The notes under the pieces: generated by a model
Told to the model about the DNA's origin: nothing
Databases searched by the model: none
What the model saw: the letters and a program-made list of their open reading frames with translations, nothing else
Part shown: piece by piece, positions 8,358-12,755 of the stretch
How positions within the stretch are numbered: position 1 is the first letter of the stretch
Layout of the letters: each line of letters begins with the position of its first letter
Position numbers and translations under genes: made by a program
NCBI GenBank assembly: GCA_019359495.1
Contig: JAHHHF010000074.1
Span: 62,001 to 126,000 of the forward strand
Direction: 5' to 3'
Source: Goleter apudmare HA4340-LM2
GTDB taxonomy: Bacteria; Cyanobacteriota; Cyanobacteriia; Cyanobacteriales; Nostocaceae
DNA: 64,000 bases

Positions 8358-8777
8358 ATGATAACTAAATCTAATGTTCAGATCACTATTGCCCTCACCA
8401 AACTGGACTTAGACGAAGAAGAACTACAAGCAGAAGTACAGAATTTGCTCCCCCAATTAAGAGAAGTAGATGGGGTAGAAGACGCAAATTTAGTTGCAGT
8501 TACAGATGTACCACAAGGTTCTAAAGCTTTGGGTGGTTTCTCTTTAGGGACTTTCAAAGCACTAATTAATCCAACCTTAATTAAACCTGTGTTTGAATTC
8601 TTAGGCCGTTTGTCTACTAGAACCTTTGAAATCAAAGTAGAAGCCTACGGTGAGAAATTCGAGGGGAAAGCTAGTAGTAAAGAAGATTTGGCATTTATCA
8701 CCCAGGAAGTCCAAACTTTTTTGAACAACGCCAAAAACAGACAAGACAGCAAAGATAAAGACAGCGATAATGGCTAG
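8358..8777 (+). CDS. EACC1-like effector-associated protein
   Basis: A 139-residue soluble protein. An N-terminal strand (VQITIALTKLDLD) is followed by a helix with LLPQLREVDGVEDANL, a Gly-rich turn (GSKALGGFSLGTFKALI), a hydrophobic helix and a C-terminal FEIKVEAYGEKFEGKASS strand pair. This order matches the Effector-Associated Constant Component 1 proteins described in predicted NTP-dependent conflict systems, where they sit beside caspase or other effector genes. Here its end overlaps the caspase gene by eight bases, so the two are surely co-translated. It presumably links the sensor and effector parts. The family assignment is from memory of the pattern. Confidence 0.68.
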   Translation: MITKSNVQITIALTKLDLDEEELQAEVQNLLPQLREVDGVEDANLVAVTDVPQGSKALGGFSLGTFKALINPTLIKPVFEFLGRLSTRTFEIKVEAYGEKFEGKASSKEDLAFITQEVQTFLNNAKNRQDSKDKDSDNG

Positions 8778-10767
8778 GATAGCACTGCTCATCGGCATTA
8801 GCGAATATCAGCCAGGATTAGCACCGCTACCCAATGCTGTGAAAGATGTGGAGGCGATGCGGCGAGTTTTGCTTAACCCAGAAATGGGTGCTTTTATGCC
8901 AGAAAACGTCAAAGTCCTGAAAAATCCCCAACGGCAAGAGATGGCTTATGCAATTGAGGATTTATATACTAATTGTCAGAAAGGTGACTTGGTACTGTTC
9001 TATTTTTCTGGTCATGGTATCACCGTAGACAATGGTGATTTTTACTTTTCAACTCGCAACACCGAGAAAAATCAGGGAAAATTGCGGACAGCTTCAGCCG
9101 TAACCGCTAGAGATGTACACGCCTTGATGAATAACTGCAAATCTAAGCATCTAGTAGTAATTTTAGATTGCTGCTTTAGTGGTGCTTTTGGCAAAGGTTT
9201 GTCACCCAAAAATAGCGGTATTGATCTAGAGAATAAATTAGGGGGTGAGGGTAGGGCAATTCTCACAGCTTCCACCTCTACACAATATGCCTTTGAGTCC
9301 GATGGTTTAGACCTGTCAATTTACACCCATTATCTCGTAGAAGGGATTGAAAAAGGCGCAGCAGATATAGATGGGGATGGTTTGATTTCGGTAGATGAGT
9401 TACATGGCTATGCGAAAAGCAAGGTGCAAGAAGCAGCACCCGCCATGACACCAGAGTTTTATCCTCATAAAGACGGGTATCGGATTGTTTTGGCGAAGTC
9501 GCCCAAGGATGATCCTAAGCTGAAGTATCGGAAGGAAGTTGAGATAATTGCTCTTGAGGATGAAGGAGAAATTTCTGATATCAACAGAGATTATTTAGAT
9601 GAGTTGCGAAAAACCTTGGGATCATCTGTTTCTGTTGATGAGGCTAATGCAATCGAATTTGAGGTGCTTGAACCTTATCGTAAACGCCAAGAAAAATTGC
9701 AACGTTATCAGCGGACGTTTTCTCGACTGAAACAGTTTCCACCTAGTCAAAAAGAACGCAATGCTTTAAATCGCTTGCAAAATATCTTAAGCTTGCGAGA
9801 TGAAGATGTTGCACCGATAGAACAAAGGATTATTGGTGAGCAAAAGCCATCTGCATCTGTAGAACAATTACCTGAACCTATTGAACAAAATCAAGCCCAT
9901 CAATTTGAGTTTGACATAGTGCAGGTAAATGCTCAAGGAAAAATCATTAACCGTAGTCAAGGACGCGCTGAGTATTTTACAGAAGACTTGGGTAATGGTG
10001 TCCTGTTAGAAATGGTATCGATTCCTGGCGGTAAATTCCTCATGGGTTCGCCAGAGAACGAAGAAGGACGAAGCAATGATGAAAGTCCACAACATACTGT
10101 CACAGTTCCACCTTTTTTCATGGGGAAGTTTCCCGTCACCCAAGGGCAATGGCAAGTCGTTGCTGGGTTTGATAAGGTGAATATTGATTTAAATCCTGAT
10201 CCATCCAATTTTAAAGGTGCGAATCGCCCTGTGGAATGCGTTTCTTGGGATGATGCAGTGGAGTTTTGCACCAGGTTGTCGAAGAAGACTGGCAAAATCT
10301 ATCGCTTACCCAGTGAAGCGGAATGGGAATATGCTTGTCGTGGGGGAACAACTACGCCGTTTTACTTTGGTGAAACGATTACCACTGATTTAGCGAATTA
10401 CCAAGGTACAGACTGGGAATATCAAGGAACCACATACCCTGGTAATTATGGTAAAGGATTGAAGGGTGAATATCGAGAGCAAACAACTGATGTGGGAAAA
10501 TTTCCTGCCAACCCCTTTGGTTTATTTGATATGCATGGTAATATATGGGAATGGTGTCAGGATGAGTGGCACAATAGCTATAACAATGCACCAACCGACG
10601 GCAGTGTTTGGTCAGGTGATAATGATAATCAAAAACGACTGCTGCGCGGTGGTTCGTGGCTCAGCTTTCCCAGGTGTTGCCGTTCGGCGGATCGCGGCAG
10701 GGACGCGCGTGACGTCAGGGACAGCCTCGTGGGTTTTCGGGTTGTGTGTGTGCGGGGCAGGACTTAG
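8770..10767 (+). CDS. Caspase-like protease fused to an FGE-sulfatase (C-type-lectin fold) domain; probable DGR target
   Basis: A 665-residue protein in three parts. Residues 1 to about 245 form a C14 caspase-like domain with catalytic His82 in FSGHG and Cys135 in DCCFSG. Residues about 255-365 form a charged helical linker. From about 395 to the end is a formylglycine-generating-enzyme/sulfatase-modifying domain, a C-type-lectin-like fold (LEMVSIPGGKFLMGS, RLPSEAEWEYACRGG, GNIWEWCQDEW). The last 40 codons fit a diversity-generating retroelement variable region, and an Avd gene and an RT fragment follow. The likely role is a binding domain that triggers proteolysis, perhaps cell suicide. No transmembrane segment is seen. 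The binding partner is unknown. Confidence 0.88.
   Translation: MARIALLIGISEYQPGLAPLPNAVKDVEAMRRVLLNPEMGAFMPENVKVLKNPQRQEMAYAIEDLYTNCQKGDLVLFYFSGHGITVDNGDFYFSTRNTEKNQGKLRTASAVTARDVHALMNNCKSKHLVVILDCCFSGAFGKGLSPKNSGIDLENKLGGEGRAILTASTSTQYAFESDGLDLSIYTHYLVEGIEKGAADIDGDGLISVDELHGYAKSKVQEAAPAMTPEFYPHKDGYRIVLAKSPKDDPKLKYRKEVEIIALEDEGEISDINRDYLDELRKTLGSSVSVDEANAIEFEVLEPYRKRQEKLQRYQRTFSRLKQFPPSQKERNALNRLQNILSLRDEDVAPIEQRIIGEQKPSASVEQLPEPIEQNQAHQFEFDIVQVNAQGKIINRSQGRAEYFTEDLGNGVLLEMVSIPGGKFLMGSPENEEGRSNDESPQHTVTVPPFFMGKFPVTQGQWQVVAGFDKVNIDLNPDPSNFKGANRPVECVSWDDAVEFCTRLSKKTGKIYRLPSEAEWEYACRGGTTTPFYFGETITTDLANYQGTDWEYQGTTYPGNYGKGLKGEYREQTTDVGKFPANPFGLFDMHGNIWEWCQDEWHNSYNNAPTDGSVWSGDNDNQKRLLRGGSWLSFPRCCRSADRGRDARDVRDSLVGFRVVCVRGRT
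10642..10767 (+). other. Probable DGR variable region (VR) at the 3' end of the caspase/FGE gene
   Basis: The segment encodes LLRGGSW, a variable stretch, then GFRVVCVRGRT and the stop. Conserved codons (TGG, CGT TCG GCG, CGC, AGG) alternate with codons at sites that are usually Asn in FGE-type templates: 10660-10668, 10672-10677, 10690-10692, 10696-10698, 10702-10707, 10711-10716 and 10720-10728. Nearly all of these variable codons end in C or T (CTC, AGC, TTT, TGT, GAT, GGC, GAC, GTC), as expected if AAY codons of a template were changed at the adenines. The GC-rich end (10741-10765) would be the initiation-of-homing site. No template copy was found nearby. Confidence 0.72.
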
Positions 10768-10867: not shown

Positions 10868-11305
10868 ATGAGTGATTTACCCATAATACAGAAAACATAC
10901 GATTTAATCAAGTGGTACGTGCCAATTTTAAACCGTCTACCGAGAGATCATAAATTTTTGTTAGGCAACCGGATGATCACAGGACTATACGATTTACTAG
11001 ATGTGCTACTCACAGCAAGGTACGCAAAACAGAAATTAACTTATTTAGAACCCTTGAATAGTAAGTTAGATATCTTACGTCATCAAACTCGCCTCCTATT
11101 AGATTACAACTTAATTAAAACTGAACGTTACGAGTACGCCCAAAGGCTGTTAAATGATGTTGGCATTGATTTGGGTGGATGGATCAAACAACAAAAAAAC
11201 AGAGACACCGATGAAAAGAACGGGCTTCGACTTCGCTCAGCCCTCGACTTCGCTCAGCCCTCGACTTCGCTCAGCCCTCGACTTCGCTCAGCCCTCGACT
11301 CTTAA
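10868..11305 (+). CDS. avd: DGR accessory protein Avd, with a repeat-derived C-terminal tail
   Basis: A 145-residue protein. The first 113 residues are a four-helix bundle of the Avd/S23-like family (LIKWYVPILNRLPRDHKFLLGNRM, GLYDLLDVLLTARYA, LDILRHQTRLLLDYNLI, YEYAQRLLNDVGIDLGGWIKQ, quoted in pieces). Avd binds the DGR reverse transcriptase and is required for mutagenic homing in the known systems. The tail from about residue 120 is read from four 17-bp tandem repeats (11228-11302) and is not part of the fold, so the original stop was probably lost. It lies 100 bases after the target gene and 261 before the RT fragment, the usual DGR gene order. Confidence 0.85.
   Translation: MSDLPIIQKTYDLIKWYVPILNRLPRDHKFLLGNRMITGLYDLLDVLLTARYAKQKLTYLEPLNSKLDILRHQTRLLLDYNLIKTERYEYAQRLLNDVGIDLGGWIKQQKNRDTDEKNGLRLRSALDFAQPSTSLSPRLRSALDS
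11228..11302 (+). repeat. Four 17-bp tandem repeats at the 3' end of avd
   Basis: Four exact copies of CGACTTCGCTCAGCCCT at 11228, 11245, 11262 and 11279, then a partial fifth. Because 17 is not a multiple of three, each copy is read in a different frame, giving a non-repetitive Arg/Ser/Leu-rich tail to Avd. The motif is shared with the hairpin at 8154-8204. Confidence 0.9.
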
Positions 11306-11566
11306 TTGAATAGACTTAGACAATAAAATCTATCAATTTAGTTTGGGTATAGCGTTTCTCAATCCAATGAAGTACACCCCACCCACCTTACTAAGAGGTG
11401 GGTTGGGGAGGGGTAGTTTTGTATCTCATCAGAGTGAAAAAGGCTATAATAACTAGCAACAAAATTCATCAATGTAGCTTGGGTTGAGGCTTTGCGAAAC
11501 CCAACACTTGATCTAGATTCAACAGGAATTACTACAAATATTACAAGTTTTTAATCGAAACATAAC
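11306..11566. other. Spacer between avd and the RT fragment; no template repeat visible
   Basis: This 261-base stretch is where a DGR template repeat could lie. I see no sequence resembling the variable region. Instead there is a hairpin-forming CCCCACCCACCTT/AGGTGGGTTGGGG segment (about 11376-11413) and a GCTTGGGTTGAGGC-type element (about 11477-11505), both of spacer-repeat character. The template may have been deleted or replaced by these elements. Confidence 0.5.
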
Positions 11567-12133
11567 ATGAAAAGATACGGTAATCTTTGGCATGAAATTA
11601 TAACATTTGATAACTTACTATCAGCAGCCCAGAAAGCACAAAAAGGTAAACGTTTTCGAGAAAATATTTTAGCTTTCAACTACAACTTAGAACAAGAACT
11701 ATTTCAACTGCAAGCACAATTACAGTCAAAAACATACTGTCCAGGAACATACCACACATTTCAAATCTATGAACCCAAACCGCGCCTGATTTCGGCGGCT
11801 CCCTATCGTGATCGAGTTGTGCATCATGCCCTCTGTAACGTTATTGTCCCCATATTTGAGCGCACATTTATTAGTGACTCCTACGCCAATCGTCTGGGTT
11901 TTGGTTCTCATCGTGCTTTACGTCGCTTCACTCAATTTGCTCGTTCAAGTCGTTATGTCTTGCAAGCTGATATCCGTAAATATTTTCCGAGTATCGACCA
12001 TGAAATTTTAAAGTCACTCATATATCGTAAAATTAAATGTCTTGATACTCTGTGGTTAATTATAGCGTTTCTTGCTTGGATACCATGTGTCCAAGGGTGG
12101 GGAAACCCCGCCCCTACGGGTTTTGTGATTTAA
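11567..12133 (+). pseudogene. Truncated DGR-type reverse transcriptase
   Basis: The first ~165 residues are a clear DGR reverse transcriptase: [77 protein letters not shown], and motif [13 protein letters not shown] with the first catalytic Asp. Homology stops after CLDTLWLI (about 12060). The remaining residues are read from a repeat element and end at 12133. The QG/LPIG region, the YxDD box of motif C and the thumb are all missing, and nothing downstream resumes them. The enzyme cannot be active alone. It follows the target and avd genes on the same strand. Confidence 0.88.
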
Positions 12134-12403
12134 AACTGTACTTCATTGGTATGAAAACCGCCATAATACAATTATTGATAATTTTACTTAATAGCCTTTC
12201 TCGGTTGAACGCAACATAATCAAGGGCGGGGAAACCCCGCCCCTACGGGTTTTGTGATTTAAAACTGTACTTCATTGGTATGAAAACCGCCATAATACAA
12301 TTATTGATAATTTTACTTAATAGTCTTTCTCGGTTGAACGCAACATAATCAAGGGCGGGGAAACCCCGCCCCTACGGGTTTTGTGATTTAAAACTGTACT
12401 TCA
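12099..12403. repeat. 129-bp tandem repeat, about 2.4 copies
   Basis: Copies begin at 12099, 12228 and 12357 with an exact period of 129 bases and very few differences. Each opens with a GGGCGGGG-AAA-CCCCGCCC palindrome followed by CTACGGGTTTTGTGATTTAAA. The last copy breaks off at about 12403, where the Rpn pseudogene begins. The array replaces the 3' part of the reverse transcriptase gene. It is not CRISPR-like, since the copies are contiguous without unique spacers. Confidence 0.92.
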
Positions 12404-12404
12404 T

Positions 12405-12755
12405 GAGTTAGGTACTTCCAATACTCAACCAATAGGTATTAATTTAATGCAATTGACTATTGCCTCTGATGAAACCATGCCCGCCCAAGCAAGACAATTA
12501 ATTGACAGGGTACAATCAGAATCAACAGACGCACTGCCAAGAAACGAAATTATAGATATCATCACCTCAATTGCTGTTTACAAGTTTTCGTCTTTGAGTA
12601 GGGAGGAAGTTGAGGCTATGCTAGGGCTGACTTTACAAGAAACCTGAGTTTACCAAGAGGCTAAAGCCGAAGGTCGAGCCCAACGGTAAGCGGAAATGTT
12701 GCAAGTTACTGTACCCTTGCTACTAAAATGCCTGTTACAGACCAGCTTCAGTAAA
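12405..12755 (+). pseudogene. Remnant of an Rpn-family (DUF2887-type) recombination-promoting nuclease/transposase
   Basis: Only the C-terminal part of a cyanobacterial Rpn/PD-(D/E)XK 'putative transposase' remains. In-frame homology starts at 12405 (QPIGINLMQLTIASDETMPAQ) directly after the tandem array, continues through IITSIAVYKFSSLSREEVEAML, and is broken by a TGA at 12645 and a TAA at 12687. After these stops the frame still reads the typical VYQEAKAEGRAQR and AEMLQVTVPLLL. The nuclease core is absent. A 66-residue frame from 12447 is open, but it is only part of this relic. Confidence 0.78.

What the first reader, a model, noticed from the sequence alone, without database searches (positions are those of the whole stretch)
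11306..12403. DGR broken: RT truncated by a tandem array and no template repeat nearby
RT homology stops after LWLI at about 12060, before motif C. A 129-bp element array follows and then an unrelated Rpn relic, so the RT's 3' part was deleted, not just interrupted. The avd-RT spacer holds repeat elements and no VR-like sequence. The target may be fixed at one variant, or an RT/template elsewhere may act in trans.
Basis: partly seen in the sequence, partly recalled or inferred. Interest (0 to 1): 0.7.

Follow-up and report, generated by a model that had tools for sequence, protein, structure and literature searches.

The report
Broken DGR with widespread RT-less relatives
A bacterial protein-diversifying machine has lost half of its copying enzyme and its template, and following the lost template led to many related cyanobacterial cassettes that keep a template and its folded RNA but carry no copying enzyme beside them.

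Summary
The window carries a DGR target (caspase-FGE; VR from 10639), an intact avd, and an RT cut at codon ~165, before motif C. A dispersed MITE-like element sits at the cut; each 129-bp unit is one element plus ~25 bp whose start matches the RT's next codons. The rest of the RT, the TR and the RNA domain that follows it in relatives are not in the assembly. The VR differs from a relative's TR at 17 of 26 adenines but 1 of 81 other bases: a real VR cut off from its template.

The genome also has a complete DGR (C16), whose TR does not fit this VR (17 of 77 non-A mismatches), and an orphan TR on C38. The ~150-nt RNA after the TR is a covarying domain without an Rfam match. Of 150 listed copies in 217 family genomes, 88 lack a linked RT; 32 of these are target+TR cassettes, 19 with at most 2 non-A TR/VR differences. 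One supported clade of 30 loci, C38 included, is wholly RT-less.

The window locus is an ordinary relic with a published parallel; the RT-less lineage is the new part, its RT supply unexplained.

The parts
8358..8777 (+). ORF139, small ORF that travels with the cassette; overlaps the target start
   Evidence: tblastn finds it upstream of the target in 9 of 14 related loci compared, 83% identical in G072; no Pfam or NCBIfam match
8770..10767 (+). DGR target: caspase (Peptidase_C14/EACC1-type) fused to FGE-sulfatase C-type-lectin-like domain, 665 aa, open throughout
   Evidence: PF00656 6e-23 and PF03781 6e-62; NF047832
10639..10763 (+). VR at the 3' end of the target
   Evidence: against the Nostoc CHAB 5844 (L070) TR: 17 of 26 A changed, 1 of 81 non-A in 107 nt; 5 non-A in 125 nt
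10868..11305 (+). avd, core intact; C-terminus extended by 17-bp tandem repeats at 11227-11300
   Evidence: NF033474 7e-40 over 1-104 of 104; repeats; dN/dS 0.02-0.11 against six relatives
11348..11450 (.). avd-RT spacer: element with TATAGCG.../...GCTATAA ends; no TR
   Evidence: read; no TR
11567..12061 (+). 5' part of the DGR reverse transcriptase (codons 1-165), no motif C
   Evidence: 93.9% identical to the G072 RT; 77% to the C16 RT; RVT_1 profile 8-97 of 205 only
12061..12166 (+). first MITE-like element, inserted in the RT after LWLI
   Evidence: dispersed family: 41 matching stretches at E<=1e-5 in the genome, the window array included and some copies counted as two stretches; solo copies with TTATAGC.../...GCTATAA ends
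12165..12189 (+). RT-derived remnant between elements (N-T-I-I-D-N codons), repeated at 12294-12318
   Evidence: first 18 bases identical to the L070 RT at the same place
12190..12404 (+). second full and third truncated array units (period 129)
12447..12647 (+). C-terminal relic of a DUF2887 (Rpn-type) gene, the far side of the presumed deletion
   Evidence: PF11103 8e-15, profile 142-200 of 200

Best explanation
The window locus is a DGR killed in cis. Shown: a MITE-like element sits in the RT gene after codon ~165; the element plus ~25 bp of RT is multiplied into a 129-bp array; the rest of the RT, the TR and the structured RNA domain behind the TR are absent, and a DUF2887 relic follows. 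Inferred: recombination or deletion between element copies removed that stretch in one step, and the target's VR has been frozen at its last variant since. Inferred: target and Avd may still be made, but the VR can no longer be refreshed, because the surviving DGR (C16) brings RT and Avd while neither template found in the genome fits this VR. Shown around it: such reduction is common in the family. Loci that keep the template RNA without RT or avd beside it (78) outnumber RT-linked ones (62) among the 150 listed RNA copies, and some keep matched TR/VR pairs.
For: RT cut and array. Dispersed element. RT 3' half, TR and RNA missing from the assembly (rated 99.97% complete). VR genuine and its lost TR of the L070/L158 type. 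In relatives TR and RNA stand behind the RT. Break probably recent. C16 complete, TR/VR differing at 21 of 30 A and 0 of 77 non-A. Counts.
Against: The deletion itself is inferred. The flanking genes tested (M16, MAP, NTase, MnmE and others) are not beside the cassette in the 14 related loci compared, so no undeleted orthologous locus was seen. No reads were available to exclude a collapse at the repeats.
Confidence: 0.85

Rival explanations
1. The window VR is still diversified in trans by the C16 RT/Avd, using the C16 or the C38 template.
For: C16 has an intact RT, avd, TR and RNA domain and a TR/VR pair that differs only at A; trans action has been inferred in Thiohalocapsa (PMC10907252, passages).
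Against: 17 of 77 (C16) and 17 of 83 (C38) non-A mismatches to the window VR, and different 3' ends, against 1-2 of 80-81 for three relatives' TRs; a VR written from either template would carry that template's non-A bases.
Confidence: 0.05
2. The break is an assembly artefact at the repeats and the living cell has an intact RT there.
For: The element family is dispersed in the genome and the assembly has 113 contigs.
Against: The missing RT half, TR and RNA are on no other contig. The array is only 2.4 units in 313 bp and carries RT-derived sequence between the elements, which a misjoin would not make.
Confidence: 0.05
3. The truncated RT and Avd were kept for a new job (for example an RNA-binding adaptor) and the locus is not dead but altered.
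For: Frame open to the cut, and low dN/dS of the RT stub and of avd. L073 keeps avd without RT, L071 and L075 with RT stubs of 27 and 36 codons.
Against: dN/dS is averaged over the time before the break as well; the stub lacks the catalytic motif and ends in repeat-coded residues.
Confidence: 0.05

Closest known systems
Degenerate DGR loci of Thiohalocapsa PB-PSB1 (Dore et al. 2024, PMC10907252; passages read)
   Same: MITE-like arrays replaced the RT (their DGR 4 and 5) or the TR (DGR 7); DGR targets in a multicellular bacterium; complete loci elsewhere in the genome.
   Different: Their DGR 4/5 VRs match the TR of another locus at all non-A sites; the window VR matches no template found in its genome. 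The passages I read do not describe loci with their own TR and RNA but no RT.
Cyanobacterial DGRs with FGE/C-type-lectin targets (Vallota-Eastman et al. 2020, PMC7517822; passages read)
   Same: C-type-lectin targets including kinase and caspase-like (orthocaspase) fusions; they note a PCC 7120 paralog (all3226) with remnant TR-VR homology and no RT nearby, and a bare RT remnant in Anabaena sp. 90.
   Different: No structured RNA domain behind the TR, no count of RT-less template loci and no RT-less lineage in the passages I read.
Partial DGRs of DUSEL4 Nanoarchaeota (Paul et al. 2015, PMC4372165; passages read)
   Same: Target genes with adenine-type VRs and no RT; the authors offer fossil or remote diversification.
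   Different: Described as target gene, VR and cis elements only; the class I cassettes here carry their own TR and RNA domain.
Bordetella BPP-1 DGR spacer RNA (Sp) (Handa et al. 2025, not held; recalled)
   Same: A structured stretch 3' of the TR is needed for cDNA synthesis by RT-Avd (recalled).
   Different: Homology between that Sp and the domain found here was not tested.

Membership tests
Functional DGR (window locus) | RT with catalytic motif C (YxDD) | tested here: not met
   cut at codon ~165; RVT_1 matched 8-97 of 205; YVDD seen in C16 and G072 RTs
Functional DGR (window locus) | template repeat linked to or fitting the VR | tested here: not met
Functional DGR (window locus) | VR differing from a TR at adenines only | tested here: met
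   against a relative's TR only: 17 of 26 A, 1 of 81 non-A
Functional DGR (window locus) | Avd accessory protein | tested here: met
   PF22296 and NF033474
Functional DGR (window locus) | C-type-lectin-type target with C-terminal VR | tested here: met
   FGE-sulfatase PF03781; VR lies at the end of the frame
Functional DGR (C16 locus, same genome) | RT, Avd, TR, RNA domain, target with A-only VR | tested here: met
   activity itself not tested
MITE (array element) | short, dispersed, inverted ends, TA-type site, no coding capacity | tested here: inconclusive
   41 matching stretches, ends TTATAGC/GCTATAA seen in solo copies, but the repeat finder reported no inverted repeat of 10 bases or more at the window array and no partner transposase was sought
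DGR with RT in trans (class I RT-less cassettes in relatives) | own TR/VR pair differing at adenines | tested here: met
   19 of 32 class I cassettes with at most 2 non-A mismatches: 248 of 502 A and 13 of 1588 other sites changed; the other 13 have 3-16
DGR with RT in trans (class I RT-less cassettes in relatives) | an intact DGR RT elsewhere in the genome | tested here: inconclusive
   an RT match in 10 of the 19 genomes (in G171 only a 203-aa frame), no intact one found in 9
DGR with RT in trans (class I RT-less cassettes in relatives) | observed cDNA or VR variation in living cells | not testable with these tools
   no reads held

The most novel reading that the evidence does not exclude
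Cyanobacteria carry a lineage of non-autonomous DGRs: compact cassettes of target, VR, TR and a structured template RNA without RT or Avd, inherited as such across genera and diversified by an RT acting in trans, which comes and goes like a helper. The orphan TR-RNA on C38 is a member that lost its target. In 23 further loci the VR runs straight into the RNA domain, so that the target's own mRNA end could serve as template.
Probability: 0.5. Interest if true: 0.85.

Novelty: new variant of a known kind. Interest (0 to 1): 0.6.

Why it matters
The large DGR survey of Roux et al. is built on the RT and says it would miss remote targets (PMC8144416, passages). A search from the RNA domain finds matches in 120 of 217 family genomes, against 55 with an RT of this kind at E<=1e-30 (the two cut-offs are not equivalent). 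If the RT-less cassettes are served in trans, the number of hypermutable genes is underestimated and DGRs have an autonomous/non-autonomous division like transposons. If they are relics, the family shows how hypermutation is switched off and a variant fixed. The covarying RNA domain gives a direct handle for testing which template RNAs an RT-Avd complex accepts. The window locus itself is a clean example of loss by element insertion.

Tried and rejected
Considered and dropped: C16 or C38 as the template of the window VR (17 non-A mismatches each). Synteny to show the deletion: the flanking genes are not beside the cassette in the 14 related loci compared. Rfam: no match at gathering scores in four loci. 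A phage source of the RT or RNA: a pattern-seeded scan, which reaches close relatives only, found 4 viral contigs with an RT relative, 28-42% identical, and none holds the exact RNA motif tried. Nodularia's '70 copies of a DGR1 ncRNA' (PMC3610870, passages): the model gives 4 matches in G102, whose contig length, 5,462,271, is that of the paper's scaffold, so the 70-copy element is probably something else; not followed. A self-templating role of class II loci: adenine content cannot separate it from a plain excision scar.

Against my own reading: 13 of 32 class I pairs have 3-16 non-A mismatches, that is, they decay. In the RT-less clade of 30, six of 13 class I pairs have at most 2 non-A mismatches (L224, L228, L264, L265, L267, L270), and five of those six sit in genomes without an intact DGR RT. 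Within that clade covariation is weak: 6 of 41 pairs with two-sided changes, further pair types reached by 123 of 500 shuffles, three pairs unformed in 25-29 of 30 sequences, though the other measures exceed all or nearly all shuffles; and that alignment was fitted to the model. So there I claim conserved sequence rather than proven structure. The census covers the 150 matches listed; more were not listed, and that search used stricter filters. 'Linked' means within 10 kb of a match to the window RT's first 164 aa at E<=1e-30. One linked match (G181:C298) was not fetched, so the tree has 149 rows. Benchmark: 31 of 46 avd-selected loci, most with a full RT (L092 has only an RT end), have at most 2 non-A mismatches; six of the 46 gave no usable pair (over 20). 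The VR of each class I cassette was picked as the best-fitting place in 2.5 kb, which favours few non-A mismatches; second-best places had 45-52 in the nine then-known cassettes with 0 or 1. One search's comparison with L025 was on the wrong strand and was redone. Loci L122, L135 and L146, with avd and no RT match, were not examined further.

Full report
WINDOW LOCUS. The window is G000:C74:62001-126000 of a 6.71-Mb, 113-contig assembly, a cyanobacterium judging by its nearest avd relatives (Nostoc, Atlanticothrix, Amazonocrinis). From 8358 it carries ORF139, a caspase-FGE target (8770-10767), avd (10868-11305) and an RT frame (11567-12133). The RT matches relatives only to 12061, codon ~165 of 352-359, 94% identical to G072 and 77% to the second DGR RT of its own genome. 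Motif C, seen in C16 and G072, is missing.

THE BREAK. The 129-bp array (12092-12404, 2.4 units, 98%) belongs to a dispersed family with 41 matching stretches at E<=1e-5 in the genome (the array is among them and some copies give two stretches). Solo copies run from TTATAGC to GCTATAA. The stretch between elements in the window starts with 18 bases identical to the Nostoc CHAB 5844 RT just after LWLI. So the element entered the RT, and element plus a piece of RT multiplied. Behind the third, truncated unit is a DUF2887 C-terminal relic. The RT stub has no stop and dN/dS of 0.08-0.12 with six relatives, against 0.07-0.15 among those relatives: the break is probably recent.

THE LOST TEMPLATE. 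In relatives the TR follows the RT (about 20 bases after it in C16, 90 in L158) and a conserved RNA domain follows the TR. The window VR differs from the L070 TR at 17 of 26 A and 1 of 81 other bases, from the L158 TR at 17 of 26 and 2 of 81. A 992-base stretch of L158 holding RT 3' half, TR and RNA finds in the own genome: C16 (RT part and TR+RNA), C38 (TR+RNA only) and the two VRs; the remaining matches are 20-37 bases. The window's own RT 3' half and TR are therefore not in the assembly.

WHAT ELSE THE GENOME HAS. C16 holds a complete DGR: kinase-FGE target, avd, RT of 352 aa, TR and RNA; TR and VR differ at 21 of 30 A and 0 of 77 other bases. Its TR has 17 of 77 non-A mismatches to the window VR. 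C38 holds a TR with RNA but no RT, avd or FGE target in the 13.7 kb fetched and no VR found in the genome by BLAST; 17 of 83 non-A mismatches to the window VR.

THE RNA DOMAIN. An alignment of 45 copies (C38 left out) gives 41 pairs, 31 with changes on both sides; 95.9% of cells pair against 82.2% in shuffles and 25-49% when the partners are slid; 0 of 500 shuffles reach any of the five measures. Rfam has no match at gathering scores in four loci tried. The model scores C16 at 143.2 (C16 was in the model) and the left-out C38 at 142.5 bits, and gives no hit in the window.

CENSUS. In 217 family genomes the model matches 120 at E<=0.001, while the window RT's first 164 residues match 55 at E<=1e-30. 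Of the 150 matches listed, 62 lie within 10 kb of an RT match (620-1179 bases from it) and 88 do not. All 88 were fetched and read: 32 target+TR (class I), 23 with the VR running straight into the RNA domain (class II), 19 without a target in the stretch (C38 among them), 7 with an RT fragment, 4 with a target but no matching TR, 3 with avd only. In 46 genomes with an unlinked RNA and no RT match, a full-length RT search finds no intact DGR RT: DGR-RT fragments in some, 22-34% matches that are presumably other RT classes, and no match at E<=1e-5 in 13.

ADENINE-TYPE PAIRS WITHOUT A LINKED RT. In 19 of 32 class I cassettes TR and VR differ at no more than 2 non-A sites: 248 of 502 A changed, 13 of 1588 others; in 8 of them no non-A site differs. 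Benchmark of avd-selected, mostly RT-bearing loci: 31 of 46. Ten of the 19 genomes have an RT match elsewhere (in G171 only a 203-aa frame), nine have no intact DGR RT. In G048, G049 and G167 the RT-less cassettes have identical TRs (0 of 110) and 1-3 of 150 differences in the RNA, while their VRs differ pairwise at 16-21 positions, every one a template adenine; target dS is 0.09, 0.59 and 0.68. That is strong conservation of template and RNA without a cis RT. G048 has an RT elsewhere; G049 and G167 have no DGR RT.

LINEAGE. On a tree of 149 RNA domains (61 linked, 78 unlinked without RT or avd, 10 with an RT or avd fragment) C38 lies in a clade of 30 unlinked rows without RT or avd in the stretches fetched (98/88; inner 28 rows 100/97), from six genera by the codes. 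Thirteen of its rows are class I, and six of these have at most 2 non-A mismatches (L224, L228, L264, L265, L267, L270). The simplest reading is that RT was lost before the clade spread and that VRs were written since, so in trans. Against it, five of these six genomes hold no intact DGR RT now; either the helper RT was lost again recently, or it lies outside the assembly, or it is unlike known DGR RTs. Elsewhere on the tree unlinked rows are scattered (22 changes of the label in all, at least 14 forced by well-supported branches), which means repeated independent losses; the window break would be one more kind of such loss, in which the RNA went too.

CLASS II. VR and TR are direct repeats around avd-RT. 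Recombination between them would excise avd-RT and leave VR joined to the RNA domain, which is the layout of 23 loci. This is inference from layout.

KNOWN PARALLELS. Replacement of RT or TR by MITE-like arrays and trans diversification are described in Thiohalocapsa (PMC10907252, passages); partial DGRs without RT in Nanoarchaeota (PMC4372165, passages); remnant TR-VR homology without RT in PCC 7120 (PMC7517822, passages); adenine-specific VR variation in N. punctiforme (PMC12691664, passages). Searches for RT-less or non-autonomous DGR cassettes with their own TR, or for a structured RNA behind cyanobacterial TRs, listed none that I recognised as such (open-licence PMC only, listings plus the passages named).

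VERDICT. The window locus alone is a new member of a known kind (degenerate DGR) and of modest interest. The RT-less template cassettes and their RNA domain, reached from it, are a new variant of a known kind and carry most of the score.

Noticed in passing
L150:12143-13244 (own genome C38): Four tandem, identical 73-aa ORFs with a leader-like start ending in a double glycine (LDVVAGG), like peptide-precursor genes.
   Followed up: no
window 11227-11300: 4.4 exact copies of a 17-bp repeat form the C-terminal end of avd.
   Followed up: no
L016:9331-9436 (C16 avd-RT spacer): The same MITE-like element family sits in the avd-RT spacer of the intact DGR of the same genome (C16:37330-37435).
   Followed up: partly
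L222 and L232 (G209, G204): Class II targets whose VR reads like an unmutated template (AAC/AAT-rich), as if the TR copy had replaced the VR on excision.
   Followed up: no
L071, L073, L075 (Nostoc): avd intact while the RT is absent (L073) or reduced to 27 and 36 codons (L071, L075), with a whole (L071) or partial RNA domain left behind.
   Followed up: partly
G090, G151, G159, G024, G198, G179: RT frames of 309-326 aa, only 28-32% identical to the DGR RT, occur in several genomes that hold unlinked DGR RNAs; their class was not determined.
   Followed up: no
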